Part shown: positions 3,369 through 20,880 of the stretch, in pieces
How the letters are laid out: the number at the start of each line of letters is the position of its first letter
How positions within the stretch are numbered: the first letter of the stretch is position 1
DNA from: a virus
Virus record (IMG/VR): IMGVR_UViG_3300046804_001322
Span: 1-27,676 of that record
Direction: 5' to 3' (one strand)
DNA length: 27,676 nt
The notes under the pieces: model-generated
What the model saw: only the letters and a program-made list of their open reading frames with translations
What the model was told of the DNA's origin: nothing
Databases searched by the model: none
Program-made: the position numbers and the translations under genes

Positions 3369-4312
3369 TGCCAGCCACCAACTTTACGCCTATCCAGCTT
3401 TACAGAACCAACACGGCGTCTACCACAGCGCCTTCGGCTGGTAACTTAAACGCTGGTGAACTTGCCATCAACTACAACGATGGCGGGATGATTCTGTTTG
3501 CCAAGAACACCACGGGCAACGTCATTAAGTTGATGAACAACCCTGCCAACTTGCTGTATCCCACAGCAGATGGCACTAATGGCCAAGTTATTACAACCAA
3601 TGGATCTGGCACGTTGTCATTTACAAGCGTTGCTGTAGGTGACGTTACCGCCGCTGGCAATAACGCCTTCACAGGCGCAAACACTTTCTACAACGCCACA
3701 GGGCAGGCGTTTGCTCCGGCAACAACAAACGATGGGATTATTCTTCAAGGCAGGGCTGGAGGGTCTTCGTCTTATCGCGTGACGTTTGCCACTGCAACAC
3801 TTAGTGGGAATAGAACGCTTACATTCCCTGACGCTACAGATACCGCTGCTGTTCTTGGCACTGCTCAAACCTTCACCGCGCTGCAAACTTTTAGCGGGTC
3901 AACCAGCGTAGCGGCAACAAAGTTAGCCAATGCAAAAGAAGTTGCAACGATTTCAGCCACGGCAGCAACGGGAACTATTAATTACGACATAACGACGCAG
4001 TCCGTTCTTTACTACACCAGCAATGCTTCGGCTAACTGGACAGTTAATTTTCGTGGCTCAAGTGGCACGAGTTTGAATACGTTGATGTCTACTGGCGAGT
4101 CTATGACGGTAGCTTTTCTTGTAACCCAAGGATCAACGGCTTACTACAACAGCGCGGTTCAAGTTGATGGCTCCTCAGTCACCCCCAAGTACCAAGGTGG
4201 CACAGCATGGTCAGCAGGCAACGCAAGCTCTATTGATGCCTACGTTTATACAATTGTTAAAACAGGCAGTGCTACGTTCACGGTATTTGCTTCACAAACG
4301 AGGTTTGCGTAA
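3368..4312 (+). CDS. Tail fibre-like protein
   Basis: The 314-residue protein starts MPATNFTPIQLYRTNTASTT, followed by S-A-G-N-L-N-A-G-E-L-A-I-N-Y-N, a well-known fibre N-terminal motif in marine and freshwater phages. The middle part (F-T-G-A-N-T-F, a S-G-N-R-T-L-T-F-P-D-A-T-D-T strip, A-Q-T-F-T-A-L-Q-T-F) is the repeated beta-shaft type. The C-terminal 115 residues (from about K-E-V-A-T-I-S to F-A-S-Q-T-R-F-A) match a globular fibre-tip domain I recognise from cyanophage-type fibres. I chose ATG 3368 because it forms the TAATG junction with the preceding fibre gene; an upstream in-frame start at 3338 would add ten residues lying inside that gene. It ends in another TAATG overlap. Confidence 0.8.
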   Translation: MPATNFTPIQLYRTNTASTTAPSAGNLNAGELAINYNDGGMILFAKNTTGNVIKLMNNPANLLYPTADGTNGQVITTNGSGTLSFTSVAVGDVTAAGNNAFTGANTFYNATGQAFAPATTNDGIILQGRAGGSSSYRVTFATATLSGNRTLTFPDATDTAAVLGTAQTFTALQTFSGSTSVAATKLANAKEVATISATAATGTINYDITTQSVLYYTSNASANWTVNFRGSSGTSLNTLMSTGESMTVAFLVTQGSTAYYNSAVQVDGSSVTPKYQGGTAWSAGNASSIDAYVYTIVKTGSATFTVFASQTRFA

Positions 4313-6333
4313 TGCCTTTAATTGAAACCAAAGGTGCTGCATCGGCTCAGGGGTTTGGGGAATTCTCCGGCCCATCTGGCCCTGTGATTTACATCGAAGA
4401 CGTTTTCTCCACCTATCTCTACACCGGCAACGGCTCTACCCAGACCATCACCAACGGGATTGATCTGTCCACGAAGGGTGGGATGGTTTGGATAAAAAAT
4501 AGAAGTCTGGGCGGGACAAATCATGCGTTGCAGGATACCGTTAGGGGTCGCAACAATATTTTGTTTTCCAACGATACTGTCCAAAATCAAGCCTATTCGA
4601 CATCAATTAACTCATTTAATTCTACTGGGTTTACGCTCGGTAGTGAAAATTTAACTAATCAAAGCGGGCAAACCTTTGTCTCATGGACCTTCCGCGAACA
4701 ACCAAAGTTCTATGATGTGGTGACTTATACGGGGGATGGTCAGACTTACAAACAAGTCTTTCACAATCTTAAAGCCCCTATTGGGATGATGATCATAAAG
4801 CGCATTGACTCTACTTCTAATTGGAGTGTAGTGGCTCGTACTGGGGCTTCAAGCGCCACTGGCCCAATAGCTTTGAATAGCACAGGAATTCCTATTTTCT
4901 CAAACGCTAATGTGCTTTTTGGAGATAGTCTTTCTGGCGGGGCTAATACATTTTTTTACGCTTCGCAGCAATCTGGAATGACAGGGGACGATTCTACAAA
5001 CGTATCTGGCGGCACCTACGTCGCCTACCTCTTCGCCCACAACGCAGGTGGCTTTGGCCTGAGTGGTACGGACAATGTGATTTCGTGTGGGAGTTATACG
5101 GGGTCCAACGGCGCGGGGCAAGCCATCAATCTAGGGTACGAGGCGCAGTGGGTGCTGATCAAAAACACCAGTCGCGCAGGGCAAAATTGGGTGCTCATGG
5201 ATAACATGAGGAGTTTTGACCAGACTAATTATGGCTGGCTGTACCCAAATACAAGCGGCGCAGAAGCGACAGGTTCTGGCGCGTATGTGGTCCCAACAGC
5301 AACTGGGTTTGCAACAACAACAAATGCAAACGCCGCTACAGACTATTTGACTGACTCCTACATTTACATCGCCATCCGTCGCGGCCCGATGAAAGTGCCG
5401 ACGAGTGGGACGAGTGTGTATACGCCAATTACACGAAGTGGTAATAGCACAGCAACTACAGTTACTGGCGTTGGGTTTGCGCCAGACTTGGTGTTTGAGG
5501 CCGCGAGAACTAATAGTGGTGGCAACAACTGGGTTTGGTTTGACCGATTGCGCGGCGGAGCCGTTGGCTTGTCGTCTGACAACACAGGCGCTGAATTTAC
5601 AAACAGCGCAGTAATTCAATCCGATTCGCTATCAACGACCATGGACGGTTTCCGTATTCAAACGGCAAACCCAATTAATTCCACGGGAAATACGTACGTC
5701 TATTATCCACTGCGCCGCGCCCCCGGCTTCTTTGATGAGGTGTGCTATACGGGGACGGGAAGTGCAACTACGCAGGCTCATAACTTGGGTGTTGTGCCTG
5801 AGTTAATGATTGTGAAGCAGCGTTCAGGTACAAATGCTTGGCAAGTTTATTCGTCAGCTTTAGCGAATACTGAATATTTGGTTTTAAACACTACAGCAGC
5901 AAAAGCAACAGGTGCTACCCGCTGGAATAGCACTACTCCTACATCGACAGTTTTTAGTATAGGAACGGCATCTGAGGTAAATACAAGCACGGCAACTTAC
6001 GTCGCCCACCTCTTCGCCACCTGCGCTGGCGTATCCAAAGTAGGAAGCTACACAGGCACAGGCGCACTCCAGACCGTCAACTGTGGCTTTACTGGCGGTG
6101 CTAGGTTTGTTCTCATCAAGCGTACCGACAGCACGGGCGATTGGTATGTGTATGACAGCGCACGGGGTATTAGCAGCGGCAATGATCCCTATCTCTTTAT
6201 GAATTCGACCGCTGCTGAAGTCACCGGCACCAACTACGTCGATACCGCCAGCGTTGGGTTCCAAGTCACAGCCGCCGCCCCTGCTGGCTTAAATGCCAAC
6301 GGTGGTACATATATTTTCTTGGCTATCGCCTGA
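4312..6333 (+). CDS. Large tail fibre/receptor-binding-like protein with six DUF7483-type repeats
   Basis: The 673-residue protein is mostly tandem units of roughly 100-120 residues, beginning near residues 36, 134, 256, 370, 473 and 576. Each opens with a Y-T-G-x-G or related turn, then a hydrophobic strand ending in W/V-x-I-K-x/R, then a W-x-x-x-D-x-x-R-G-like piece and N-T/S-T/S-A. Units close on aromatic strands such as F-V-S-W-T-F-R, Y-V-A-Y-L-F-A-H-N and Y-I-Y-I-A-I-R-R. This is the architecture of DUF7483-type fibre proteins, presumably a string of lectin-like beta modules reading the cell surface (inferred). It is the last of three fibre genes in a row and precedes the fibre assembly chaperone-like gene, supporting a role as the distal receptor-binding part. 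Confidence 0.8.
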   Translation: MPLIETKGAASAQGFGEFSGPSGPVIYIEDVFSTYLYTGNGSTQTITNGIDLSTKGGMVWIKNRSLGGTNHALQDTVRGRNNILFSNDTVQNQAYSTSINSFNSTGFTLGSENLTNQSGQTFVSWTFREQPKFYDVVTYTGDGQTYKQVFHNLKAPIGMMIIKRIDSTSNWSVVARTGASSATGPIALNSTGIPIFSNANVLFGDSLSGGANTFFYASQQSGMTGDDSTNVSGGTYVAYLFAHNAGGFGLSGTDNVISCGSYTGSNGAGQAINLGYEAQWVLIKNTSRAGQNWVLMDNMRSFDQTNYGWLYPNTSGAEATGSGAYVVPTATGFATTTNANAATDYLTDSYIYIAIRRGPMKVPTSGTSVYTPITRSGNSTATTVTGVGFAPDLVFEAARTNSGGNNWVWFDRLRGGAVGLSSDNTGAEFTNSAVIQSDSLSTTMDGFRIQTANPINSTGNTYVYYPLRRAPGFFDEVCYTGTGSATTQAHNLGVVPELMIVKQRSGTNAWQVYSSALANTEYLVLNTTAAKATGATRWNSTTPTSTVFSIGTASEVNTSTATYVAHLFATCAGVSKVGSYTGTGALQTVNCGFTGGARFVLIKRTDSTGDWYVYDSARGISSGNDPYLFMNSTAAEVTGTNYVDTASVGFQVTAAAPAGLNANGGTYIFLAIA

Positions 6334-9008: not shown

Positions 9009-9397
9009 GTTCAGCAACCAAGTCAGATCCAGGCAAATGGAAGCGCATTGTTGCCTCAGTCAAAGCTTCGGGCAAAGGTGGCAATCCAGGCCAATGGAGT
9101 GCCCGTAAGGCTCAACTAGCCACCCAGAAGTACAAAGCCTCTGGCGGGGGTTACAAAGGGCCTAAAAAAGCGGATAATTCACTCTCAAAGTGGACGAAGG
9201 AAGACTGGGGTACGAAGTCTGGTAAGCCGTCTACGCAAGGCCCCAAAGCAACTGGCGAGCGTTACTTGCCCAAGGCAGCACGAGAGAAGCTCACCCCTTC
9301 TGAATACGCGGCAACCACGCGAGCCAAGCGCGAAGGCATGAGGCAAGGCAAGCAGTTTGTGCCCCAGCCCGAATCGATCAAGAAGAAGGTGTGGTAA
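9005..9397 (+). CDS. Small basic DUF5872-type phage protein
   Basis: The 130-residue product is Lys/Arg/Gly-rich. It carries the DUF5872 pattern: S-D-P-x-x-W near the start, a G-x-P-G-Q-W-S-A-R-K-A-Q-L segment (about 27-39), G-G-G-Y-K-G-P, N-S-L-S-K-W-T-K-E-D-W-G-T-K-S-G (about 58-73), E-R-Y-L-P and E-Y-A-A-T-T-R-A-K-R-E-G. The family is uncharacterised and occurs in diverse phages and some bacteria. High positive charge suggests DNA contact, and the position between endolysin and neck adaptor suggests a late gene; both are inference. The ATG overlaps the endolysin stop (ATGA) and the stop overlaps the next ATG (TAATG). Confidence 0.82.
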   Translation: MSSATKSDPGKWKRIVASVKASGKGGNPGQWSARKAQLATQKYKASGGGYKGPKKADNSLSKWTKEDWGTKSGKPSTQGPKATGERYLPKAAREKLTPSEYAATTRAKREGMRQGKQFVPQPESIKKKVW

Positions 9398-10026
9398 TGG
9401 CCTACGCAATGACTTACAACAACTTGGTGACTGACATCCAGCAATACCTGGAGCGCACCGACGCCGAGACTGTTGCTCGCATTCCCACCTTCATCGGACT
9501 TGCCGAGCAAGTCATTGCAAGCCAGATTAAGTTCCTCGGTAATTTGACCGTGCAAAGCAGCACGATGAATGCTGCTAATCCAATTATCGACAAGCCTGCA
9601 CGGTGGCACAAAACTGTTTCCATGAACATCACAGTGGCAGGCAAGCGTTATCCTGTGCTGCTACGAAAGTATGAGTACCTGCGTGAATACTGGCCCGACC
9701 CGACTCAAACGGACATTCCCAAATTCTATTGCGATTACGATTACACTCATTGGTTTGTGGCTCCAACGCCGACTCTTGCGTATTCCTTTGAAGTGCTTTA
9801 TTACGAAAGAGTACAACCGCTAGACTCAAGCAATCAAACCAACTGGTTTACGGTGTACGCGCCTCAAGCATTGCTTTACGGCTCACTGCTGCAAGCGATG
9901 CCATTCCTCAAAAACGATGAGCGCACACCGATCTGGCAGGCGCAGTATGACGCCATCATACAAACCCTTATGGCTGAAGATAAGCTGCGTATCGCTGATC
10001 GCCAGGCCATTGCCGCGGATAGTTAA
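9397..10026 (+). CDS. Head-to-tail adaptor protein (SU10/P22-type)
   Basis: The 209-residue protein begins MAYAMTYNNLVTDIQQYLER and continues with the typical adaptor helix I-P-T-F-I-G-L-A-E-Q-V-I-A-S-Q-I (about 27-42). A strand section with Y-L-R-E-Y-W-P-D-P and P-K-F-Y-C-D-Y-D-Y follows, then Y-S-F-E-V-L-Y-Y-E-R and T-N-W-F-T-V-Y-A-P-Q-A-L-L-Y-G-S-L-L-Q-A. This matches the phage adaptor family that forms the ring beneath the portal in podoviruses. ATG 9397 gives the TAATG junction with the DUF5872-type gene; an in-frame GTG at 9391 adds two residues and is less likely. It is followed two bases later by a fibre-like gene and then by the gp10-like hub, consistent with neck assembly. Confidence 0.82.
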   Translation: MAYAMTYNNLVTDIQQYLERTDAETVARIPTFIGLAEQVIASQIKFLGNLTVQSSTMNAANPIIDKPARWHKTVSMNITVAGKRYPVLLRKYEYLREYWPDPTQTDIPKFYCDYDYTHWFVAPTPTLAYSFEVLYYERVQPLDSSNQTNWFTVYAPQALLYGSLLQAMPFLKNDERTPIWQAQYDAIIQTLMAEDKLRIADRQAIAADS

Positions 10027-10028
10027 TC

Positions 10029-11270
10029 ATGAGCTATACCAGTCCGTTTACAGGCGACGTTGTACAGCCTACTGACGTTTCGTATGAGTCCATTACGTTA
10101 ACTGCCAACTTGCAGTTGGTATGGCCCATCAATGGGAACTTAAGTACCGACACGCCAGCAGCACGCATCATGGACGTTGATGCAACGGCTGCAAGCCTTG
10201 AGTTAAGAATGCCTCAGGCTAATCAAGTCTCAGTGGGTCAAGACGCGTTAATTAGAAATGTAGGCGCGGAAGATTTTACCGTCACTACTTATGACGGTGC
10301 CTCAACCATTGTCACAATAACGTCGGGAACTGCGCGTTACATCTACCTAACTGATAATGGTGATGAAGAAGGTACTTGGGCCAACTTTGAGTTCGGTGCT
10401 GGCACTTCAAGTGCTGATGCTGCCACCCTTGCTGGCGCAGGCCTTCTAGCCTCGGGATTAACGCTTAATCAAAGCCATCCTGTTGAATCAGTTGTTGCAA
10501 GCCAATCCTTTGTGGATGGCGATCGCGCTAAGACTTATGTATGGTCTGGTGGCGCGACTACGGTTACGTTGCCATCTGCTGTTACCGTGGGCAATAACTG
10601 GTTCATGCTCTTGAAGAACAATGGCACAGGCACATTAACACTTGATGCGCCAGGCTCTCAAACCATTGACGGCAGCTTGACCAAAGCATTTGCGCCCAGT
10701 GAATCAGCATTCATTGTTTCCACGGGCACTGAGTTTGTCACGATTGGCTATGGTGTCAGCACGCAGTTTGAGTTTGGCATTCTGACCAAAACAGTAACCA
10801 ATGGCACTTACACGCTGACTGCTAGCGAAGCTGCCAACACAATCATGATCTTCAATGGCACGTTGTCTAATAACGTGACCATCATTGTGCCGCCCGTGAT
10901 CAATTTTTATGTGATCAGCAATCAAACCACGGCAGGTGGCTTTACGCTGACCATCTCAACGGGCGCTGTTGGTGCCAATACGGCTACGGTGCCTGCAGCA
11001 GGCCAGGCCACGGTATTTTGCGATGGCACCAACATTCTGAATGCCAACACCACACAGGCTGGCGGTACGTCCTTTAGCCTGGTTAATGGCTCTGCTGGCA
11101 GCCCATCACTTAACTTTGGCTCTGAAACCAACACAGGCATTTACAGGCCTGGTGCTGGGCGTTTTGGCGTTTCCATTCTTGGTAACTTAGTCTTGGATGT
11201 AGATGCAAATGGCATCAATGTCACAGGCACTGGTAACTTTACAGCAGGCATCAGTGGGGGCACCTTCTGA
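10029..11270 (+). CDS. Fibre-like virion protein next to the gp10-like hub
   Basis: The 413-residue protein starts MSYTSPFTGDVVQPTDVSYE and has an I-M-D-V-D-A-T/M-P-x-A-N-Q-V-S-V-G-Q-D-A-L-I-R-N-V-G segment. These are motifs I recognise in a widespread family of environmental-phage virion proteins of unknown structure. A helical link (S-S-A-D-A-A-T-L-A-G-A-G-L-L-A-S-G, about 130-150) is followed by Gly/Thr/Asn-rich beta segments. The end (S-L-N-F-G-S-E-T-N-T-G-I-Y-R-P-G to A-G-I-S-G-G-T-F) resembles fibre tips or the last turn of a beta helix. Its place between adaptor and hub genes suggests a short neck or tail-associated fibre rather than the main receptor-binding fibre. It ends in TGATG with the next gene. 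Confidence 0.72.
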   Translation: MSYTSPFTGDVVQPTDVSYESITLTANLQLVWPINGNLSTDTPAARIMDVDATAASLELRMPQANQVSVGQDALIRNVGAEDFTVTTYDGASTIVTITSGTARYIYLTDNGDEEGTWANFEFGAGTSSADAATLAGAGLLASGLTLNQSHPVESVVASQSFVDGDRAKTYVWSGGATTVTLPSAVTVGNNWFMLLKNNGTGTLTLDAPGSQTIDGSLTKAFAPSESAFIVSTGTEFVTIGYGVSTQFEFGILTKTVTNGTYTLTASEAANTIMIFNGTLSNNVTIIVPPVINFYVISNQTTAGGFTLTISTGAVGANTATVPAAGQATVFCDGTNILNANTTQAGGTSFSLVNGSAGSPSLNFGSETNTGIYRPGAGRFGVSILGNLVLDVDANGINVTGTGNFTAGISGGTF

Positions 11271-13549
11271 TGACCAAGAAGGTTTTTGCGCTTGATACCA
11301 AGCCTGGCATTCAGAGGGATGGAACGCTCTTTGATAAAGAGTTTTACTCTGATGGCAGGTGGGTAAGATTTCAGCGTGGTCGCCCTCGCAAGATCGGTGG
11401 TTATCGTGAAATCATCAACAATCTGGCAGGCCCCTCACGGGGCATTTTTGTAGTTGTCCGCAATCTTTTTAACAACGTCTACAGTGGCTACAGCGATGGC
11501 TTGCAAGTGCTGCCTGTCAATAACAGTGGCGTAGGGTCAGGCCTTCAAGATTACAGTTTTGGCGGTCCGATTGCATCGTTATCGATTGCTGATGCAGGCT
11601 CTGCCTATACCGATGGTACGTATACCAATGTGCCTTTGAGCTATACCACCTCGGGAACAGGCGTAGGTGCTGTAGCTACAATCACGGTAACGGGCGGTGT
11701 AATTACAGCAGCCACGATCACAGGCTTTGGTGTGCATTATGTGGCTAGTGAGTTGCTCACAACGGCCAATACAAATATTGGTGGCACTGGCTCTGGCCTT
11801 GTCTTGCAAGTGGCAACGATTGACTCGCCATTTACAGCGTCTGATGTCAATTCCTGGCAGTTTGATACGTTCACAGACACGGTCAGCTATCAAACCAACT
11901 TGCTCTTAGCTCACCCTTCGAGGGATCTGGATAACATTGATTCAGACATCAATACGCCACTGCTTTGTGGACCGTTATCGGGCACTGTTTTGTGGGCTGC
12001 AGGTCTTTTTGCTGTCTCAAGTTGCTCGGTTACTAGTGGCTCAGCGACGGTCACGCTTGCAACCATTAACACGAAGATTGCTGCAGGCCAATTAGTCAAG
12101 GGTTATGGCATTCCTGCTGCCACCACAGTAGTGTCGATTGTGGGTACCACGGTCACACTCAGTGCCAATGCTACGGCCACATCAACAACCACGCTGACAT
12201 TTGACAATCAAGTCTCAATCTCGGGTGGTGTGGTTGCTCTGCACCCCTATGTGTTTGTGTATGGCAATGATGGCCTCATCAAAAACTGCTCAGCAGGTGA
12301 TATTGATGACTGGGTCTCAGCAGACGCTAACGAGGTCAATGTGGCCACGGGCAAGATCTTGCAGGGTTTACCCGTCCGAGGTGGTTCCAACGCGCCTAGC
12401 GGCCTATTTTGGTCCTTAGACAGCCTTATTCGTGTGTCCTTCACGCCTCAAACGCTTGGCGTGCCTGGCACAGGGAATTTTGCTGCCACCACGTACTGGC
12501 GCTATGACATCATCACAAGCCAGTCATCATTTCTGTCGTCATCGGCGGCCATCGAATATGACGGGATTTACTACTGGATTGGCACTGATCGATTCCTGCT
12601 CTACAACGGTGTCGTCAAAGAAGTTCCCAATCCAATGAACCAGAATTACTTCTTTGATAACTTAAATTATGCACAGCGCCAGAAGGTCTGGGCCACAAAA
12701 GTTTCAAGGTTTGGTGAAGTGTGGTGGTTCTATCCGCGTGGCAGTGCCGTTGAATGCACGGATTGCGTGATTTATAACATCCGTGAAAACACTTGGTATG
12801 ACTCTGGTGAAGCTTATGGCGTTCAGCGTTCTGCAGGTTACTTCACGCAAGTATTCCGCTATCCCGTGGAAGCAGGGTATGAAGTCAATACAGCGAATGC
12901 TATCAATCAAGTAAGCATCACGGACCTTGGCAGTGGCTATACCGACGGTACGTATAGCTTTGAAGCACTGACGGGTGGTACAGGTTCTGGCGCAACAGCC
13001 ACCATGGAAGTGGTTGCAGGCTCAGTGGTGCAAGTCACAATCAACAATCGTGGCTCAGGCTATACCGTGGGCGATACGCTCACAGCCACGCTTGATGGCA
13101 TTGGTATCGACTTTGAAATTACGGTTGATACGCTCATGCAATTGGTCTCGTTATGGCAGCATGAAGTGGGCAAGAACCTCGTTAAGGGCACCAATGTTTT
13201 GGCCATTGAAAGCTCATTTACCACCTCAGATCTTGGTGTAATTGCTGGCGGTCCATCACAGCCAAGTCCAGTGGGTGAGAATCGTTGGACACGTCTTGAG
13301 CGTGTGGAGCCAGACTTTATCCTTGAAGGCAACTTGGACCTTTACATCGTTGGCAGGCCTTATCCTGACCAGCCCGATCAAATTACGGGGCCTTACACCT
13401 TCGATTCAGTCACGGGCAAGATTGATATGAAAGAGCAGCGCCGATTGCTGCGTTTGAAGTTTGTGTCTAATCAAGTTGATGGCGACTACCAAGTCGGTAA
13501 AATTATTGTCGATGCCGATTTGGGCGATGTTCGAGGTTACACAACATGA
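11270..13549 (+). CDS. Tail hub / packaged-DNA stabilisation protein, P22 gp10-like, with inserted modules
   Basis: The 759-residue protein opens with a motif set typical of P22 gp10-like proteins: P-G-I-Q-R-D-G-T near residue 12, then W-V-R-F-Q-R-G-R-P-R-K-I-G-G-Y. Later segments fit the same hub: P-Y-V-F-V-Y-G-N-D-G (326-335), Y-W-R-Y-D-I-I-T, Y-Y-W-I-G-T-D-R-F-L-L-Y-N-G (434-447) and W-W-F-Y-P-R-G-S (485-492). In P22, gp10 plugs the tail tube. Three stretches look inserted: 101-184 and 544-620, which share G-S-x-Y-T-D-G-T-Y and Gly-rich turns, and about 250-312 (S-G-S-A-T-V-T...G-I-P-A-A-T-T-V...L-S-A-N-A-T-A-T). P22 gp10 is roughly 470 residues, so the extra length is largely these modules. 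TGATG joins it to the previous gene. Confidence 0.78.
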   Translation: MTKKVFALDTKPGIQRDGTLFDKEFYSDGRWVRFQRGRPRKIGGYREIINNLAGPSRGIFVVVRNLFNNVYSGYSDGLQVLPVNNSGVGSGLQDYSFGGPIASLSIADAGSAYTDGTYTNVPLSYTTSGTGVGAVATITVTGGVITAATITGFGVHYVASELLTTANTNIGGTGSGLVLQVATIDSPFTASDVNSWQFDTFTDTVSYQTNLLLAHPSRDLDNIDSDINTPLLCGPLSGTVLWAAGLFAVSSCSVTSGSATVTLATINTKIAAGQLVKGYGIPAATTVVSIVGTTVTLSANATATSTTTLTFDNQVSISGGVVALHPYVFVYGNDGLIKNCSAGDIDDWVSADANEVNVATGKILQGLPVRGGSNAPSGLFWSLDSLIRVSFTPQTLGVPGTGNFAATTYWRYDIITSQSSFLSSSAAIEYDGIYYWIGTDRFLLYNGVVKEVPNPMNQNYFFDNLNYAQRQKVWATKVSRFGEVWWFYPRGSAVECTDCVIYNIRENTWYDSGEAYGVQRSAGYFTQVFRYPVEAGYEVNTANAINQVSITDLGSGYTDGTYSFEALTGGTGSGATATMEVVAGSVVQVTINNRGSGYTVGDTLTATLDGIGIDFEITVDTLMQLVSLWQHEVGKNLVKGTNVLAIESSFTTSDLGVIAGGPSQPSPVGENRWTRLERVEPDFILEGNLDLYIVGRPYPDQPDQITGPYTFDSVTGKIDMKEQRRLLRLKFVSNQVDGDYQVGKIIVDADLGDVRGYTT

Positions 13550-13794
13550 CGATTGCGCTTGTTTATGATCCTCGGTATCACACGTTTGATTCGTGGGCAG
13601 CACTCATGTGTGAAGCCTACGCAGGCCAACAACTGCAAATTCCTGGCCCTGATGTGGACTTTAAGTCTTGGGGCGCAGGCTTAAAAGCCATCGATATTTT
13701 TGCCAATGAAGGCATACCAGAGCCTTATAGTTTTGAAAACTGGGAAGATTGGGCGGCTGCCTTAGTCAACGCCGTCAATAGAAGGGTTGAGTGA
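13546..13794 (+). CDS. Small acidic hypothetical phage protein
   Basis: The 82-residue protein is acidic and Trp-rich (F-D-S-W-A-A-L-M, F-K-S-W-G-A-G-L-K-A-I, F-E-N-W-E-D-W-A-A-A-L-V). Three repeats of an F-x-x-W-x-x-W/A-A pattern suggest short amphipathic helices. No known domain is recognised. It overlaps the hub gene by four bases (ATGA) and lies immediately before the ejection-protein genes. Small genes at this point in related phages are conserved but unexplained; a hub- or ejection-assembly role is only a guess from position. Confidence 0.75.
   Translation: MTIALVYDPRYHTFDSWAALMCEAYAGQQLQIPGPDVDFKSWGAGLKAIDIFANEGIPEPYSFENWEDWAAALVNAVNRRVE
13781..13786 (+). promoter_or_regulatory. Ribosome binding site for the PATGA-repeat protein
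   Basis: GAAGGG lies nine bases before ATG 13796 and supports that start over the in-frame TTG at 13787, which is too close to the site. Confidence 0.6.
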
Positions 13795-13795
13795 C

Positions 13796-15499
13796 ATGAC
13801 AACTTCAAATTTGCTATCCAGCACTGGAACTACTTTTCAGATGAGTCCTTTGGATTATGCAAATGTACTCAACAAAACCTACACAGATGCAACTGATCTG
13901 TACAACCGAGCCGTAGGAATGTTTGGCGAGACATCTGCTCAAGCGGCGGCTGCTAAAAATAATATGCTTGTATCTCAGAGGCAGTTGTCTAACTTAAGCG
14001 GTGCCGCAACAGGAGCTTTGCCAGCCACAGGCGCCGTAACAACCACCCCAGCTACTGGAGCTTTAACAACAACTCCAGCAACAGGTGCCATAACAGCAGC
14101 ACCAGCTACTGGTGCTTTAACAACACCAGCTACGGGTGCTGTAACGTCGACTCCTGCTACTGGAGCCTTAACAACGTCAGCCACAGGTGCTGCGACAGCA
14201 GCGCCTTTGACCATCCAACAAAGACTTCAAACAGCCGCCGGAGCCGACAATAACTTGACATACAGTCAGTTGATGTCAATTGCTAATCAGAACAATTTAA
14301 CGCTTGATCAAATAGCGCCTTACATCTCAGATCCTACAAATCGTACGGCAGTGCTTGCAGATCTAAATAAATTCAAACCTTCGTTTAATGCACTTTATGA
14401 AACGTATGCTCCAAATGCTGTAAATACGTACGCTATTAACCAAGCGGAAGAGCTAGCAAGGGAAAACCAAAAAGTTGACTTTTCTAATCAAAACCGCGCA
14501 ACGCAGTTAGAAGCTTGGAAGCGTGGTTATTGGAACACCCCTGAATTGTTGGCAGGCGGACGCGAATCGATCAACACTTATTACGGCGCAAAACCCGTTT
14601 ATTTAACAAGCGCACTAACTGGCTCAAACCAAGGTGCTACGAGCAATCGCCTTATATCAACGCTTCAAAACGCTATGCAAAGTCCTGGAGGGTTGGGTGA
14701 AAACATCAAGGCGGCTGTTGGTGCGTACCAAGATCCGACGGGCAAGACACTTGCTTCGCCAACAGAGATTGCAGCAGCAGACGCTTATGTCAAAAGAATA
14801 ACGGGCAATCCAAATGCAACTTACGCAAACACTTTACGAGATTTAGATACGCGTGGTGGCGGCTTCATGTACGACGAGCAGCGACTACTCGGTGATGTGA
14901 AGAGCAATCTTACTAAAGGGTTAGAAGCAAATCTTTCAATATCTAAATGGGACCCCAAGACTAGGGGTGAGATGTTTGCTCAGCAAATAAATAAACTCAA
15001 AGTAACTCCAAGTTTTGTTGCAGCGGCACTGGGCGTTTCAGAGAATGATATTTTAAGACTCGCCGGTGGCGACCCTGCACTGTGGAGCCGACTTGCAGTC
15101 AATGAATTAATCCCCACGCAACCCGTAAGAGAGGGTGCATCTTACAGATATGGGCCATCCGCAACAGTAAGTGGACCAAGCACTAACACGGCGCTTACGT
15201 CTAGCCAGCCAACAACAAGCAGATCTAGCACGGCGATCACTTCTAGCCAACCAACAGATGCTGGAAGAATCCTTCCAAGATTTGATCTTTTTCCTCAGAC
15301 TGGCGCGGGGGCTGACGGAAAGCCTGAAGCTGTAAAAGTAGGAAGTAAAACAGTTTATATGGAATCAATTTACGGATTGCCTATTGCCGAGCAAGTAACA
15401 AAGCTTAAAGAGTTGGGAGTCAAGGCCTCTAATTTAATTGCAAGTGGCGCTGATCAAAATTACGTTGATGATTTAATAGCATTAGGGTTGCAAAAATAA
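13796..15499 (+). CDS. Probable internal virion protein with PATGA-repeat linker
   Basis: The 567-residue protein has a helical N-terminus (about 15-70; A-Q-A-A-A-A-K-N-N-M-L) and a low-complexity linker (71-138) made of eight A-T-G-A units separated by Thr/Pro-rich spacers. A long, mostly helical, polar body follows (about 139-460). A second Ser/Thr-rich segment contains two S-S-Q-P-T strings (about 460-490), and the C-terminal helical end has E-Q-V-T-K-L-K-E-L-G-V-K-A-S-N-L-I. No enzyme motif or signal peptide is seen. It is not a family I can name. It is the first of five consecutive genes in the position of the P22/T7 ejection proteins, and it shares Thr/Gly/Ala linker style with the next, very large protein. 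It ends in TAATG. Confidence 0.75.
   Translation: MTTSNLLSSTGTTFQMSPLDYANVLNKTYTDATDLYNRAVGMFGETSAQAAAAKNNMLVSQRQLSNLSGAATGALPATGAVTTTPATGALTTTPATGAITAAPATGALTTPATGAVTSTPATGALTTSATGAATAAPLTIQQRLQTAAGADNNLTYSQLMSIANQNNLTLDQIAPYISDPTNRTAVLADLNKFKPSFNALYETYAPNAVNTYAINQAEELARENQKVDFSNQNRATQLEAWKRGYWNTPELLAGGRESINTYYGAKPVYLTSALTGSNQGATSNRLISTLQNAMQSPGGLGENIKAAVGAYQDPTGKTLASPTEIAAADAYVKRITGNPNATYANTLRDLDTRGGGFMYDEQRLLGDVKSNLTKGLEANLSISKWDPKTRGEMFAQQINKLKVTPSFVAAALGVSENDILRLAGGDPALWSRLAVNELIPTQPVREGASYRYGPSATVSGPSTNTALTSSQPTTSRSSTAITSSQPTDAGRILPRFDLFPQTGAGADGKPEAVKVGSKTVYMESIYGLPIAEQVTKLKELGVKASNLIASGADQNYVDDLIALGLQK
14006..14209 (+). repeat. Tandem ATGA-coding degenerate repeat
   Basis: Eight A-T-G-A units are encoded with spacers of two to five residues (L-P, V-T-T-T-P, L-T-T-T-P, I-T-A-A-P, L-T-T-P, V-T-S-T-P, L-T-T-S, then A-T-A-A-P). 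The codons vary between units, so the repeat is maintained at protein level and is not a recent slippage product. Confidence 0.8.
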
Positions 15500-18400
15500 T
15501 GGCTGATCCTGATTACGCCTCGCTCGGGCGCTTGTTATTCGGGTTTAAGCCCGAGGAGCCACTTGAGGAGCCGTTAAAGGAGCCGCAAGACTTAATCGGC
15601 GCTCAGCCACTCATCACAGAGCAATCACCTCTCGATACGGGCGCGAGTCTTTTTAAAGCTACAGAACAAACAGCGCCATTGACTGATGCGTCAAGCTCAA
15701 GCGCATTAGATACGGTTATTGAAAAACCAAAGACAGCCGACACGGTCACAGGTGCAATCGGCAGCGACACAATAACGGGCGCCGCTCCAGACACGGGTCT
15801 TGCAGATCGATTTTATGACCCTATGTTGAAATCCAACTGGGACCGTGAAAGTGTTGCTGATTTTGGTTTGCAAAACGACCCAAGGTTTGCTGGAAGCAAT
15901 GAGTTTTATATTGATCCAAATACTGGAAAGTATGTATCAAGAACAGACTATTTAGCGACCGCCAATACGCCAGAGGCCGTTGCTTATCGCAATGAGCAGG
16001 CTCGAATTGCCGCCGCAAATGCAAAGTTATTCAGACCTGGAAACACGCTAACAAGTGGTTTCGGCAACGTCACTGAACAGCTCGGAGGGTCTGGCTACTA
16101 CAAAGGCGTAGCCATACCAAAGTTTTATGAGCAGTCTCTTGGCGACGCTGGGTCGTTATCGGTTGCCGATCAGCTTGCACAATGGAAAGCCAATATTGAT
16201 AAGCAAGACCTGAGTGCTAACGCACCCTTTGGTTTTGTCGAGACGCCAGTCTATACGCAGCCCACAGGTGATTACGATCCTTATGTTAGTGGTTACAAAT
16301 CAACACCTGCTACGGCGTTTGATTACTTAACGCAGAACAATCCTAATATTGCAAATGCTGTCTTAGGGCATACGTCAACAGGTGCGTTTGCGTACAAAGT
16401 TGTCAATGGCGAGCTAAAAGAAGTAGGGCATGACGAAATAACGCCTGAAGATATTGCTCAAGGCAATGCTTTCTTCTTGCTTGCAGGCGCAACAGGTGGC
16501 CCGAATCGACAACGTATGTCGCAACTTTATCGGGCTGATGGCAACGACCTTATTCCTGTTGGCGATCCTAAGATGTATCAAGGCGCCAAAGAACAGGACA
16601 TGGGGCTTGCATTCCTTGATATGGCTGCATCAGCCCTGGCATTTGTTCCAGGGCCATGGCAAGTTCCAGCAGCAATTTACAAAGCTGGACGCGCCATAGA
16701 TCAAGGTGACTGGGCGCAGGCAGCGCTTGCTGCAATACCCGTAATTGGCGACTTTGCAAATGCAGCAGCAGTTGCCTCGGAAGCTGCTCAAGTGGCTGGT
16801 GCTGTTGAATCAGCATCTTTTGCAAATGACATTGTTAACGCAGTTTCGAGTGCTGTTCCATCGCTAGACTCCGTAGGAAAAGTAACCAACGCGCTGCAAC
16901 AATCAGTTAGTGCTCTAAAAGCCATTGACGACAAAAACTGGTTAGGGCTTGTTGCATCGGGCACAGGGCTTGCTGGAGCCACAGGAGCAATTGACCCAAA
17001 TACAGCGGGTCTTATCAGGAGCACAGCAAATCTTGCAAATGTTTTGAATAACAACGGCAGTCCAGCGCAAATCATTGCTGCTGCTACAGCATTAGCAAAC
17101 AATCAAGGTTTTGTTGATCGCGCCACTACCGATCAGGTCAATGCAGTCGCTTCGATCATTGCTGCTAAAGACAATCCTGCGGCATTAATGGGTGCTGTAG
17201 CGCAAGCAGCCCGATCAGGCGTATTTAATGAGACTGCGAAAATCGGTGCGCAGTACGAGCAACTTAACAACCGTGGCGTAATCGACGAATACAACGTCAC
17301 TGGTGGTGGCGGTGCGCTTATAAGCAGTGGCAACCCCACTGAAGACGAGCAAATTAGAATCCAGCAGCGCCAGAACGCTGCCAACCAAGCGTTAACAGAC
17401 TACATGGGGTCAGGCAATGACTTAAGCCGTGAAGGCCTAGTAAGTCAATTGCAAAGCCTTGGTCTTACGGCAGATCAAGCCGAGGGGTATGCTCAACAAG
17501 CCGATCAGAAGATCAATATGAATCGCGTCGGCGCTGATGTGATGTATCGCTACTCAAAGATTGATCCTGAGTTTGGTACGCCTCAGCTTGATCGAGATAC
17601 GGCGGTACAGGAAATGGTTGCTGCTGGCTTCACATCAGATCGAGCCAATGAAATACTCAATGGTATTGATGCGCAGAATGCGATCAAGTTAGAAAACAAA
17701 CTGAGCGTTCAATCTGCATACAACAATTACACATCTGGCAAAGGTACTGAAGAGCAGTTACGGAGTGCATTGACATCGGCTGGTTACACAGATGCAGAAA
17801 TCAATAATTTAGTCACGCGTGGCAATGCAGTCCTTGAAGGCAAAAGACTTACTTCTGGTGAGCAGGCTCAAGAGCGTGCCGCAAATCTGCCGGATATAAG
17901 AGCAGAGATTGCAGGAAAGTCTAGCTTTAATGAAGCGTATGCGTTAGCCAGAGAAAAGCTTGGTGCAGGCGCTACATTTACTTGGCAAGGTAAAGACTAT
18001 GTTGCGTCATCTGCAGCCGAGCGTCCAGACTTAAGTGGAAAACCAACTGACTATTCGGCAGCAGGTGCTTCACTGTTTAAAACGCCCGCTGCTGATATTT
18101 CATCCTATGGTACGCCTTACGTAGCTCCAAGTGGCATGCACAATCGTGCGTCATTCATACAAGCTGGTGGTGGCACAAGCGATGAGGACTATGCCAAATA
18201 TGTGCGAGCCGTAAATGCGTTGATAGCAGAGGGTAAATCAGGCGCATTAATTACGCCTGCATCGGTTAATAGCACTGGCAAAGAGATGCCATCGACCACA
18301 GGCCCGGTCACGATGGAAAAACCCAAAGTTGACTCAGTGCTTGGCAGTGTTGTTGCGCAGGGTGTTGCAAGCTTTGGCGCCAACTCAATTGCTGGTGTAT

Positions 18401-20880
18401 TGAATTCATTAGGCTTCACAGACGCTGGCAAGACAGTCCTTGATAAGGCCAATCAAATTGCTGCTGCCGCCACTGCAGCAGAAGGCGCTGACATCACTAA
18501 GGGCAAAGCCGATATTAATGCTGCAATCAAAAAGGTTGGTGAATCATCTGGCATCAAAGATTTTGCCATTAATGTTGGCAATTTGGCCTCGACCGCATTT
18601 AACAATCCCAAGGCTTTTGGCGCAACTGTTGGCAGTGAAGTTGTGGAAGAGCTATTTCAGTTTGCAACGCTCAAATTCCCAGCAAGTTTCCTCGTTAAAG
18701 AAACCGTTGCGTCAGCCTTGGAAAATGCTGGCGCTGCTTATAACACTGAATATGAGTCGCAAATTGCGAAAGGCGCATCCAAAGAAGATGCGCATCAAGC
18801 CGCGCAAAAGGCTGCTGGAACTGCTGCTGGCGTTTCAGTAGCGTTAGGAGGCGCTGCTGCAGGCTTAGGCAAGGTGGCCGGTAAAGTAATTGGCAGCCAG
18901 GCTGATGAAGTGCCCACAAGCGGCGTAGGTCAAGTTGGCAAAACAACGCTTAAAGAATCGGCTCAAGAAACAGTTGAAGAAGGCAGTATTGCCGGTGCCA
19001 TTGATTTGGCTTTAGGTCGTCCAGTTGATGCTGTAAACGTGCTTACTAACATGACAGGTGGCGCCTTATATGGCGGCCCAACAAGTGGCGTGATGCAAGC
19101 CACTAAACTTGATTCACTTGACCAGCAATCAACATTCATTGGATCTGGACTGGGGGCCGATTCAGCATCTGTTAATCAAGCAATTAATAATTTACAGTCA
19201 GTCTTTGGCACTGATGGCGCAGCAAATTATGTTGGCAATCTGATTGGCTCGGACAATCTTGCTGCTGGAGGTCAAACTTTAGCTTCTAATCTTGCTAACG
19301 TCATGGGCAGCGATGCTGCAGTCACAACGGCTAATACGCTTGTTGGAAACTTGGCGATTAGCAAAGTCTCAGACACATTGCAAAGCGCAGGTATCGACTT
19401 AGAGAATTTATCAACCGTGGTTGGTAAAACCGACGCAGGCAATGACATCACGCTTGGTGATGCACTCGGCGCTTCGATTACTGGCAATGGTCAAAGCGTA
19501 TCAGCATCGACTGTAGTTGGCCTAAAACCAAATGGATCAGATCTCACTCTTGGTGAGCTAGCCAGTGCTATAAAGACTGGCAATGTATCTCAAGTGACCA
19601 CTGACTTTGCAGAGACAGGTAAATCGCTTTTTGGAAGCGGTCAAGATACTGCCACTTCAGGAGCAGTAACGACTGACGTTACGGGTTCAACGGCAACCAC
19701 TGGCACAGCAACTGACACAACTGGGGTAGTTACTGCCGAAACGGGCGCTACAACTGGAGCCGCAACTGGAGCAACTTCAGGCGTTGACACAGCCACGGGT
19801 GCGAGCACATCTACTGATCCAGCAACTGGCGTTATTACGTCCACATCTACTGATGAAGCCACTGGGGTAAAAACAGTAAAAGAAGTTGATCCTGTCACGG
19901 GTGAATCTACCGTGATTACGTCCGATGAGACGGCTGGTATTGTCACAAAAGAGACTATCGATTCAAATGAAAGTAGCACTACAACTGTAGACTCAAATAA
20001 CAACATAACAACAAACACAACTGTCAATACAAATACAAACACGACAACTAACATAACGGTAAACACCAATACTGGTGAAGTTGTTGTAAAAGTTACAAAC
20101 AGTGGTACTGGTGAAGTTCTTGACACCCAAATTAAGACTGTTGATGAACTGACGCCCAGTGAATTAGAAAAACTCACTATTACTGATCCAGCAACTAAGA
20201 CATCAGTAACTAAGAAGCCTGTAACCAAGCCTCCGGTGGCTACAGCGCCAAAACCAGGCTCATCAGCCGGATTTTCTATGTTTGGAGAAATAGGAAGGTT
20301 AGGTACGCCTATGCTTAAATCTGCTGGTGACACCCAAATAAAAAACCCGCTTGAGAAATTGTTTCAAAGCGTTGATGTGATGAATCAAATTGATCCTGCG
20401 CTTTTAGCAGTGATGACACAACGCTTAAATATTCAGCCTGAGCAAGCGCCTACGTTCACTTATGGCCAAGAAACATCCATTGATGACATCCTAGGCCTTC
20501 GAGAGCCTAAGAAGCCAGAAGAGGCTCTATATGCTGAAGGTGGCTATGTAGAGCCACTTCGAGCCAAGCCAATGAACTTGCAATTCATGAATCGTGGCGG
20601 CGCATTACCAGGTGGCCGTGAAGACTTCAAAGACGGCAAGCACGTTGCTGGTGATGGTGATGGTCAATCGGATGACATCCCGGCATGGCTTGCAGACGGA
20701 GAATTTGTATTTCCTGCCGATGTGGTTTCTGCACTTGGTAATGGCTCAACCAAGGCAGGAACAGATAAACTCTACAAGATGATGCACGAGATCCGAGCAC
20801 GAGCCAGATCTACGAAAGTCAAAGACTTACCACCGCCAGCGCACAAGTCACCGCTGGACTATATTAAGAAGGGTAAATAA
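15499..20880 (+). CDS. Giant internal virion / ejection-type protein (1793 aa)
   Basis: The product is built of several parts. An acidic Pro-rich start is followed by aromatic polar segments. An Ala-rich hydrophobic region lies at about 370-435, and a helical region at about 630-790 contains repeated L-x-x-x-G-Y/F-T-x-D/A-x-A/I motifs. Around 810-837 is an F-N-E-A-Y-A-L-A-R-E...T-F-T-W-Q-G-K-D-Y motif known from phage virion proteins. About 1100-1131 is a Gly/Ala-rich potentially membrane-inserting stretch, and about 1386-1544 is a Thr-rich linker. The C-terminal region (about 1680-1793) contains G-D-G-Q-S-D-D-I-P-A-W-L-A-D-G-E-F-V and P-A-D-V-V-S-A-L-G-N-G-S-T, a motif recurrent in large phage internal proteins. 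By size and position it corresponds to the large ejection proteins (like T7 gp15/gp16), probably helping DNA cross the envelope. No transglycosylase motif is visible; that is in the last gene of the group. Confidence 0.75.
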   Translation: MADPDYASLGRLLFGFKPEEPLEEPLKEPQDLIGAQPLITEQSPLDTGASLFKATEQTAPLTDASSSSALDTVIEKPKTADTVTGAIGSDTITGAAPDTGLADRFYDPMLKSNWDRESVADFGLQNDPRFAGSNEFYIDPNTGKYVSRTDYLATANTPEAVAYRNEQARIAAANAKLFRPGNTLTSGFGNVTEQLGGSGYYKGVAIPKFYEQSLGDAGSLSVADQLAQWKANIDKQDLSANAPFGFVETPVYTQPTGDYDPYVSGYKSTPATAFDYLTQNNPNIANAVLGHTSTGAFAYKVVNGELKEVGHDEITPEDIAQGNAFFLLAGATGGPNRQRMSQLYRADGNDLIPVGDPKMYQGAKEQDMGLAFLDMAASALAFVPGPWQVPAAIYKAGRAIDQGDWAQAALAAIPVIGDFANAAAVASEAAQVAGAVESASFANDIVNAVSSAVPSLDSVGKVTNALQQSVSALKAIDDKNWLGLVASGTGLAGATGAIDPNTAGLIRSTANLANVLNNNGSPAQIIAAATALANNQGFVDRATTDQVNAVASIIAAKDNPAALMGAVAQAARSGVFNETAKIGAQYEQLNNRGVIDEYNVTGGGGALISSGNPTEDEQIRIQQRQNAANQALTDYMGSGNDLSREGLVSQLQSLGLTADQAEGYAQQADQKINMNRVGADVMYRYSKIDPEFGTPQLDRDTAVQEMVAAGFTSDRANEILNGIDAQNAIKLENKLSVQSAYNNYTSGKGTEEQLRSALTSAGYTDAEINNLVTRGNAVLEGKRLTSGEQAQERAANLPDIRAEIAGKSSFNEAYALAREKLGAGATFTWQGKDYVASSAAERPDLSGKPTDYSAAGASLFKTPAADISSYGTPYVAPSGMHNRASFIQAGGGTSDEDYAKYVRAVNALIAEGKSGALITPASVNSTGKEMPSTTGPVTMEKPKVDSVLGSVVAQGVASFGANSIAGVLNSLGFTDAGKTVLDKANQIAAAATAAEGADITKGKADINAAIKKVGESSGIKDFAINVGNLASTAFNNPKAFGATVGSEVVEELFQFATLKFPASFLVKETVASALENAGAAYNTEYESQIAKGASKEDAHQAAQKAAGTAAGVSVALGGAAAGLGKVAGKVIGSQADEVPTSGVGQVGKTTLKESAQETVEEGSIAGAIDLALGRPVDAVNVLTNMTGGALYGGPTSGVMQATKLDSLDQQSTFIGSGLGADSASVNQAINNLQSVFGTDGAANYVGNLIGSDNLAAGGQTLASNLANVMGSDAAVTTANTLVGNLAISKVSDTLQSAGIDLENLSTVVGKTDAGNDITLGDALGASITGNGQSVSASTVVGLKPNGSDLTLGELASAIKTGNVSQVTTDFAETGKSLFGSGQDTATSGAVTTDVTGSTATTGTATDTTGVVTAETGATTGAATGATSGVDTATGASTSTDPATGVITSTSTDEATGVKTVKEVDPVTGESTVITSDETAGIVTKETIDSNESSTTTVDSNNNITTNTTVNTNTNTTTNITVNTNTGEVVVKVTNSGTGEVLDTQIKTVDELTPSELEKLTITDPATKTSVTKKPVTKPPVATAPKPGSSAGFSMFGEIGRLGTPMLKSAGDTQIKNPLEKLFQSVDVMNQIDPALLAVMTQRLNIQPEQAPTFTYGQETSIDDILGLREPKKPEEALYAEGGYVEPLRAKPMNLQFMNRGGALPGGREDFKDGKHVAGDGDGQSDDIPAWLADGEFVFPADVVSALGNGSTKAGTDKLYKMMHEIRARARSTKVKDLPPPAHKSPLDYIKKGK
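19656..20130 (+). repeat. Thr/Gly/Asn-rich low-complexity segment in the giant protein gene
   Basis: This encodes residues about 1386-1544. The first half is A-T-G-A/T-T-G-A-like units, the second half T-N-T-N-T and N-x-N-x-T strings with V-D-P-V-T-G-E and D-P-A-T-G-V pieces. It reads as an extended linker and is rich in threonine codons of all kinds. Confidence 0.7.

What the first reader, a model, noticed from the sequence alone, without database searches (positions are those of the whole stretch)
11270..13549. gp10-like hub carrying three inserted beta modules, two of them related
Residues 101-184 and 544-620 share the G-S-x-Y-T-D-G-T-Y motif and Gly-rich turns, and about 250-312 is a different S-G-S-A-T-V-T...L-S-A-N-A-T-A-T module. 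Together they could account for most of the excess over the roughly 470-residue P22 protein. Such decorations on a hub that faces the cell could bind envelope components or brace the fibres.
Basis: partly seen in the sequence, partly recalled or inferred. Interest (0 to 1): 0.5.

Follow-up and report, generated by a model that had tools for sequence, protein, structure and literature searches.

The report
Phage tail nozzle with swappable modules
A phage tail-tip ring protein carries three add-on beta domains that its relatives have or lack in different combinations, sometimes one inside another, at fixed loops of an otherwise steady protein: a clear example of how a virus can rebuild the outside of its tail while keeping the DNA channel.

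Summary
Confirmed and extended. The 759-aa protein is a podovirus tail-nozzle protein (P22 gp10 / T7 gp12 / SU10 gp17 fold; AF2 pLDDT 89.8; VIA Z 26.7 to the Pa223 tail protein 9nwi_Y, 18.1 to P22 gp10). The three regions are real insertions: Caulobacter phage GB2A has the same protein without them (510 aa), phage MW202545 has two of them. Among 256 distinct relatives the lengths at these three sites fall into widely separated classes, while other segments differ by about a dozen residues or less. Modules A and C are homologous (score 128 vs 42±7 for shuffles, 0 of 1000); B is unrelated to A. New beyond the finding: four module types in 13 arrangements (the empty one included) among 247 of 249 sequences typed, with modules nested inside the B-type module. 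The B type resembles a capsid decoration protein (Z 10.3). Modules evolve faster than the core (dN/dS 0.10-0.11 vs 0.04-0.05) but under purifying selection. Most likely they are outer, cell-facing accessory domains of the nozzle; position is inferred and a binding function is not shown. Inserted Ig-like nozzle domains are already known (SU10, crAss001), so this is a new variant of a known kind.

The parts
11270..13549 (+). 759-aa tail nozzle protein (gp10/gp12/gp17-like hub) carrying the three modules
   Evidence: sequence hits to 9nwi_Y, deposited as 'Capsid and scaffold protein' of a Pa223 tail entry, and to VP1 nozzles 8zkk_O, 8zkm_E; phrog_3287 virion structural, E 7.6e-22; AF2 pLDDT 89.8; Z 26.7 to 9nwi_Y; 18.1 to P22 gp10
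11570..11827 (+). module A, type T1 (residues about 101-186), site A, between propeller blades 1 and 2 by strand order (inference)
   Evidence: absent in GB2A, present in MW202545; segment length classes; pLDDT 92-96 by block
11999..12205 (+). module B, type T2 (residues about 244-312), site B, between blades 2 and 3 by strand order (inference); small beta-barrel like a capsid decoration protein
   Evidence: profile E 0.004, with a composition bias larger than the score; Foldseek E 0.026; 8eci_1 Z 10.3, 74 aligned
12890..13150 (+). module C, type T1 (residues about 541-627), site C, in the last blade at the position that maps next to the SU10 fibre-dock loop (weak mapping)
   Evidence: absent in GB2A and MW202545; homologous to module A; mapping (hhalign probability only 5%)
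12227..12835 (+). part of the propeller without the three sites (residues 320-522), expected to line and gate the channel (inference from SU10/T7)
   Evidence: lowest dN/dS, 0.04; segment 447-509 is 61 long in 254 of 256, segment 388-428 varies between 27 and 40
11270..11404 (+). N-terminal platform strands (residues 1-45), by analogy
   Evidence: secondary structure; T7/SU10 platform described in passages of PMC6702177 and PMC9509320
13247..13537 (+). C-terminal platform part (residues about 660-756), by analogy
   Evidence: secondary structure; residues 659-669 have pLDDT under 50
9391..10026 (+). tail adaptor gene upstream
   Evidence: PF24175 SU10_adaptor E 4.2e-23
10029..11270 (+). 413-aa fibre-like protein encoded directly before the nozzle
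   Evidence: phrog_12796 tail fiber E 1.9e-7; an ORF of 60 aa or more ends within 120 bases of the hub start in 252 of 256 distinct relatives

Best explanation
It is the tail nozzle (hub) protein of a short-tailed phage, by analogy a hexamer. Its seven-bladed propeller and platform (fold shared with P22 gp10, T7 gp12 and SU10 gp17) hold and gate the DNA. Three permissive loops on the outer, distal side accept self-contained beta modules of about 65-90 aa. The module types recur in other phage virion proteins (baseplate wedges, fibres, a capsid decoration protein, tailspikes). In this family they are present or absent in many combinations, the same type occurs at different sites, and some are nested in others, without disturbing the core. 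The likely job is an accessory outer layer of the tail tip that makes low-specificity contacts with the cell envelope and with neighbouring subunits or fibres. Shown here: fold, insertion, homology of A and C, combinations, nesting, faster but constrained evolution. Inferred: outward and distal position, hexamer, movement between sites, and the contact function.
For: Fold. Insert-free and two-insert relatives. Length classes in 256 distinct sequences from 302 loci: (site A 34-36 / 116-125 / 180; site B 32-38 / 94-101 / 173-186; site C 25 / 50-55 / 100-118 / 181-182, plus a few cut or single cases). Arrangements: (249 of 256; 7 cut sequences set aside). Recurrent change on the core tree of 116 representatives: at least 8, 11 and 6 state changes at A, B and C. 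Same module types at different sites: T1 at A, C and inside T2; T2 at B and C. The nested C-site T1 of L279 and L268 score best against A-site T1 (68-69% and 63-64% identity; the best-scoring C-site T1 48-50% and 51-52%). Modules in other families: 18 PHROGs for T1, 15 annotated as virion parts; 4 for T2, each matched by at most 11 of 39 members; BFVD matches to the T1+T2 model include cyanophage baseplate wedge, fibre and structural proteins. Selection: dN/dS A 0.11, B 0.10, C 0.11 against 0.04-0.05 in the core over 112 pairs, with similar synonymous divergence. [quoted passage not shown]
Against: No hexamer model and no coordinates were available, so outward projection was not measured. No ligand or receptor evidence. 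dN/dS near 0.1 is not the signature of diversifying selection. 60 of 249 sequences have none of the modules, so they are dispensable there. A test on the T1 tree does not reject all A-site copies as one group without the nested C-site copies (p-AU 0.786), so transfer from site A to site C rests on pairwise similarity alone. Gly/Thr/Ser-rich sequence makes weak database matches unsafe. The SU10 dock mapping has an hhalign probability of 5%.
Confidence: 0.66

Rival explanations
1. Bracing: the modules mainly strengthen the tail by packing against the neighbouring nozzle subunit, the fibre base and the needle, as SU10 nozzle domains do before release, with no contact to the cell. (Overlaps with the best explanation; the two are not exclusive.)
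For: SU10 nozzle domains contact neighbouring subunits and the fibre dock (PMC9509320 passages). Site C maps next to the SU10 dock loop (weak). In the insert-free clade site C holds a tandem R[VI]T[EQ] repeat of period mostly 8-9; 27 of 41 distinct segments have exactly three strict copies, recalling the three-Trp SU10 dock for a trimeric fibre.
Against: Occupancy differs between related cores, which is hard if each module is fitted to a neighbour. The upstream fibre-like protein is homologous across most pairs of states. Modules diverge faster than the core.
Confidence: 0.4
2. Receptor adhesins: the modules are the specific receptor-binding domains and set the host range.
For: Position at the tail tip by analogy; T2-like parts in tailspikes and T1 in fibre and baseplate families.
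Against: Purifying selection without excess amino-acid change. Fibre-like proteins are encoded nearby (4312-6333 and 10029-11270). Many relatives lack one, two or all modules.
Confidence: 0.15
3. Neutral passengers: promiscuous beta modules that insert into loops by recombination and are tolerated, with no benefit.
For: Repeated change of occupancy, nesting, and presence of the same modules in many other virion protein families.
Against: Reading frame and predicted fold are kept, dN/dS about 0.1, and modules persist over core identities down to about 0.65-0.7.
Confidence: 0.15
4. Integral hub: the regions are ordinary parts of the propeller and platform rather than inserts.
For: None found; pLDDT there is as high as in the core.
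Against: Insert-free relatives with the same core; solved nozzles align over 455 of 512 and 429 of 471 residues (residue-level alignment not seen).
Confidence: 0.02

Closest known systems
Escherichia phage SU10 nozzle protein gp17 (PDB 7z47/7z4b; PMC9509320)
   Same: Platform plus seven-bladed propeller; [quoted passage not shown] a fibre gene directly before the nozzle gene (gp16, gp17 in the paper) as in the window; VIA Z 25.5
   Different: SU10 has four nozzle domains at one site and a Trp-based fibre-dock loop; here single modules sit at three sites and vary between relatives. The adaptor gene (gp11) is several genes away in SU10 but next to the fibre-like gene in the window
crAss001 muzzle protein gp44 (PDB 7qol/7qok; PMC10172136)
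   Same: Propeller nozzle with Ig-like domains between blades 2/3 and in blade 3, and a further domain nested in the second one: the same nesting principle; VIA Z 19.1
   Different: About 1,370 residues with a unique crass fold as the nested part; the passages read call it highly conserved, with length variation by insertions, but describe no set of interchangeable modules
P22 gp10 and T7 gp12 nozzle/hub proteins
   Same: Same core fold: P22 Z 18.1 with 429 of 471 aligned; T7 Z 18.3
   Different: P22 gp10 is about 290 residues shorter; T7 has one tip domain in a propeller loop (PMC6702177, passages)
Arthrobacter phage Bridgette decoration protein (8eci_1), for module B only
   Same: Small beta-barrel, Z 10.3, rmsd 3.1, 74 aligned, 27% identity; similar G-I-P-A-G-T-T motif
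   Different: A free-standing 126-aa protein named decoration protein, not part of a tail hub; F1-ATPase and E1 barrels also score Z about 5-6, so the fold is common
Caulobacter phages GB2A, RW, RLK, KcrB hub
   Same: Direct homologue, 42.6% identity over 61% of the window protein in each; similar neighbours in GB2A
   Different: GB2A: 510 aa, none of the three modules; the other three have a match of the same span, not aligned one by one

Membership tests
Podovirus tail nozzle (P22 gp10 / T7 gp12 / SU10 gp17) | Propeller plus platform fold over the whole core | tested here: met
   Z 26.7 (9nwi_Y), 25.5 (SU10), 18.1 (P22); unrelated propellers at 15.3 and less
Podovirus tail nozzle (P22 gp10 / T7 gp12 / SU10 gp17) | Sequence similarity to solved nozzle proteins | tested here: met
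   8zkk_O 'nozzle gp16' E 1.8e-11; 9nwi_Y E 2.5e-15 (deposited as 'Capsid and scaffold protein' in a tail entry)
Podovirus tail nozzle (P22 gp10 / T7 gp12 / SU10 gp17) | Encoded near adaptor and fibre genes | tested here: met
   adaptor PF24175, then fibre-like ORF, then this gene
Podovirus tail nozzle (P22 gp10 / T7 gp12 / SU10 gp17) | Hexamer on the adaptor at the tail end | not testable with these tools
   only monomer prediction was available
Nozzle with inserted Ig-like domains (SU10 / crAss001 kind) | Extra beta domains inserted between propeller blades 2 and 3 | tested here: inconclusive
   insertion of module B is shown; its place between blades 2 and 3 is my reading of the strand order
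Nozzle with inserted Ig-like domains (SU10 / crAss001 kind) | Inserted domains have the Ig-like fold | tested here: inconclusive
   module B resembles a decoration-protein beta-barrel; module A/C was barely tested
Phage capsid decoration proteins (module B) | Same beta-barrel fold as 8eci_1 | tested here: met
   Z 10.3, 74 aligned; next 8.1, a tailspike; Foldseek E 0.026
Phage capsid decoration proteins (module B) | Binds the capsid surface | not tested
   the module lies in a tail protein; no claim of capsid binding

The most novel reading that the evidence does not exclude
The nozzle is a combinatorial mounting plate. Three fixed loops, plus two internal points of the T2 module that can host a second module, accept at least four beta-module types from a pool that also circulates through capsid decoration, tail-tube, baseplate, fibre and tailspike proteins. 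The outer surface of the tail tip can thus be rebuilt by insertion, loss and site-to-site transfer while the DNA gate stays fixed.
Probability: 0.48. Interest if true: 0.62.

Novelty: new variant of a known kind. Interest (0 to 1): 0.47.

Why it matters
Solved nozzle proteins of short-tailed phages (many are listed) are single snapshots with or without extra domains. Here one family shows states in between: empty, one, two and three modules, two types at one site, and modules within modules. That makes it testable whether such domains are contact parts, braces or tolerated passengers. It also links small beta modules in tail hubs with a capsid decoration protein and with baseplate proteins.

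Tried and rejected
tblastn of the three single modules against 50,697 phage records found nothing. The low-complexity filter is the probable cause, since module-bearing MW202545 was found with the whole protein, so this is no evidence of absence. Pfam gave no family for the hub at E 1 and only matches below the curated cut-offs for module pieces. The best solved-structure sequence hits for T1 were a beta-lactamase (E 0.045) and an antibody (E 0.94), rejected as chance.

Idea that site C follows the type of the neighbouring fibre gene: among 109 of 116 representatives the upstream proteins match each other at 1e-5 in 1800 of 1845 C0-C1 pairs, 480 of 615 C0-insert-free and 540 of 675 C1-insert-free pairs, so not supported. 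Diversifying selection: not supported, dN/dS about 0.1. Other proteins of the same viruses with the modules: of 10,588 ORFs of 80 aa or more in the window and 302 loci, the 222 that matched T1 or T2 at 1e-3 were all hubs (most loci reach 5 kb or less from the hub). A tree of T1 modules (93 of 121 copies, 88 columns) was poorly resolved (5 of 90 inner branches starred); A-site and C-site copies lie mostly apart, and one group of all A-site copies is not rejected. An alignment for a model of nested modules failed, T2 being laid on T1, and was not used.

Paper searches: searches listed, by title and start of abstract, no paper that I recognised as being on interchangeable nozzle modules, apart from the SU10 and crAss001 papers on inserted domains; two searches found no paper and one search was about decoration proteins. 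Only passages of PMC9509320, PMC6702177, PMC10172136 and PMC10607447 were read; the last describes a phage protein with four Ig-like domains before a propeller. The listed P-SCSP1u, LSH1 and GT1 papers were not opened.
Full report
What was checked. The ORF at 11270-13549 (+) encodes 759 aa; on the other strand of this stretch only ORFs of 104 and 90 aa were listed at 80 aa or more. The motif and residue ranges of the finding are right. Modules A and C align almost end to end (128 against 41.7±7.0; 0 of 1000 shuffles), A and B do not (671 of 1000), B and C only weakly (81 of 1000). Within the protein the only windows that match A above 41 are those overlapping C.

What the protein is. Profile search of solved structures finds podovirus tail proteins (9nwi_Y of phage Pa223, deposited as 'Capsid and scaffold protein', E 2.5e-15; VP1 'nozzle gp16' E 1.8e-11). 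An AF2 model from 115 sequences has pLDDT 89.8 and pTM 0.88, with blocks of 92-97 in all three modules. VIA-align gives Z 26.7 for 9nwi_Y (455 of 512 aligned), 25.5 SU10, 24.9 VP1, 19.1 crAss001 muzzle, 18.3 T7 and 18.1 P22 gp10 (429 of 471); the first unrelated propeller stands at 15.3. Upstream lie an SU10-type adaptor and a fibre-like ORF. SU10 also has a fibre gene directly before its nozzle gene, but its adaptor gene is further away. So 'gp10-like hub' is right.

The modules are insertions. GB2A (510 aa) has none, MW202545 (672 aa) has A and B, the window protein has all three. I collected 302 loci with hubs, 256 distinct sequences. Between conserved anchors the three sites fall into widely separated length classes. 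Other segments vary much less: 447-509 is 61 long in 254 of 256, but 388-428 ranges from 27 to 40 and 632-681 mostly from 41 to 55.

Module types and arrangements. Four profiles were built: T1 (modules A and C), T2 (module B), T3 and T4. Of 256 sequences, 7 cut by contig ends were set aside (a few of them still hold a site in full); one further cut sequence, L247, is counted. In the other 249: A:T1 B:T2 C:T1 67; none 60; A:T1 B:T2 58; B:T2 C:T1 24; A:T1 C:T2 11; B:T2+T3 C:T1 8; A:T1 B:T2+T4 5; B:T2 5; A:T1 B:T2+T3 3; B:T2+T1 C:T1 3 (L282, L290, L262); single cases A:T1 B:T2 C:T2 (L248), B:T2 C:T2+T1 (L268), B:T2+T3 C:T2+T1 (L279); and two whose site-C stretch is untyped (L270, L222). That is 13 arrangements, the empty one included, for 247 sequences. 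L153 is counted with A:T1 B:T2 although its site A is longer (180) by an untyped stretch. A further copy of the L279 arrangement lies in a contig binned as Limnohabitans sp. (L304). In 59 of the 60 'none' sequences site C holds a stretch 25-30 aa longer than in GB2A.

Nesting. In L262, L268 and L279 (site C) the T2 match stops at profile position 50-55 and T1 follows; in L252, L279 (site B) and L160 it stops at 58-61 and T3 or T4 follows; in L282, L290, L124 and L131 it runs to 61-66 and T1 or T3 follows. Judged by eye from what remains of T2 after the guest (sequences), these are two internal points, one in a hairpin and one before the last strand, each used by more than one guest type. The nested C-site T1 of L279 scores best against A-site T1 (68-69% identity; best-scoring C-site T1 48-50%), L268 likewise (63-64%; 51-52%). 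This suggests transfer from site A to site C, but the T1 tree does not reject all A-site copies as one group without the nested ones (p-AU 0.786), so it is not proved.

History. On a core tree of 116 representatives (418 columns, sites left out) the 17 rows without T1 or T2 are one side of a branch (support 100), and occupancy needs at least 8, 11 and 6 changes at A, B and C. These counts do not tell gain from loss. In the A:T1 B:T2 C:T1 group, core identity of 0.90-0.97 (131 pairs) goes with 0.73, 0.81 and 0.77 in A, B and C. NG86 pooled over 112 pairs of that group (85-98.5% identical; pairs not independent): dN/dS 0.04-0.05 in the core, 0.11, 0.10, 0.11 in A, B, C, with pS 0.50-0.53 everywhere. 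The modules look functional, less constrained than the core, and within that group have travelled with it.

What the modules are like. Of 53 T1 pieces scanned (2 of the window, 51 of the 103 listed), hits fall in 18 PHROG families, 15 of them annotated as virion parts (baseplate wedge, tail fibre, Hc2 head closure, virion structural), 4 of them matched by all 53. Of 39 T2 pieces, 4 families are hit, by 11, 10, 2 and 1 members. A second AF2 model, residues 90-318 (pLDDT 93.1), finds for the T2 part the decoration protein of Arthrobacter phage Bridgette (Foldseek E 0.026, no match under 0.001; VIA Z 10.3, 74 aligned, 27% identity), then parts of the LKA1 tailspike (8.1), the Mystique tail tube (7.3), the Phi92 tailspike (6.1) and the lambda tail tip (6.0). 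E1 and ATPase barrels reach about 5-6, so part of this is a common fold. BFVD matches to this T1+T2 model, 27 at E 0.001 or less, include cyanophage structural, fibre and, further down, baseplate wedge proteins; which module matches is not told.

Where the sites lie. By strand order of the model (my assignment), A follows the last strand of blade 1, B lies between blades 2 and 3, and C lies in the last blade before the chain returns to the platform. [quoted passage not shown] The hhalign match of the family to SU10 pairs residues 412-539 with 712-844, which puts the dock at site C, but its probability is only 5%. In the insert-free clade site C holds tandem R[VI]T[EQ] units of period mostly 8-9, exactly three strict copies in 27 of 41 distinct segments, fewer in 14. 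This resembles the three-fold SU10 dock, but is an analogy.

Function. Best reading: an accessory outer layer of the tail tip, touching the envelope and/or neighbouring parts, on a conserved gate. No binding was shown, and the two halves of this reading (cell contact, bracing) cannot be separated here. Against specific receptor binding: purifying selection and frequent absence.

Prior work. Inserted Ig-like domains in nozzles and nesting are described for SU10 and crAss001; the crAss001 paper also notes length variation by insertions. New here is the set of intermediate states inside one family. That novelty rests on the listed paper searches only, seen as listings.

Noticed in passing
L218, L212, L184 and other loci of the insert-free clade, site C (residues corresponding to about 533-627): Short stretch of tandem [IV]R[VI]TEAGD-like units, period mostly 8-9, exactly three strict copies in 27 of 41 distinct segments; recalls the three-Trp dock for a trimeric fibre in SU10 gp17. 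GB2A (L082), which lacks it, has a fibre gene of about 790 aa before the hub, whereas most of its clade have about 370-450 aa there.
   Followed up: partly
window 13787-15499 and 15499-20880: Two proteins (570 and 1793 aa) after the nozzle with no PHROG match at the thresholds used and only Pfam matches below cut-off for the larger; by position perhaps ejection proteins.
   Followed up: no
window 23512-24768: 418-aa protein with a transglycosylase/endolysin-like N-terminal part (several PHROG lysis and lytic tail families), perhaps an ejected cell-wall enzyme.
   Followed up: no
L026 and L067 (contig IMGVR_UViG_3300047121_000347): One 101,830-base contig holds two different hub genes about 55 kb apart (75% and 76% identity to the window protein): two related phage genomes joined, or a chimeric assembly.
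   Followed up: no
L304-L308, L314: Hub relatives in contigs binned with Limnohabitans, Burkholderiales and other betaproteobacterial MAGs (6 of 12 genome-contig hits; the other six are binned with other groups): a hint at betaproteobacterial hosts, but binning of phage contigs is unsafe.
   Followed up: partly
window 4312-6333: 673-aa protein with DUF7483 (E 3e-96) and a tail-fibre PHROG match; a second fibre-like protein of this phage.
   Followed up: no
L153 site A (residues about 92-257): Site A segment of 180 aa: a T1 module followed by a stretch that no module profile explains; a possible fifth module type.
   Followed up: no
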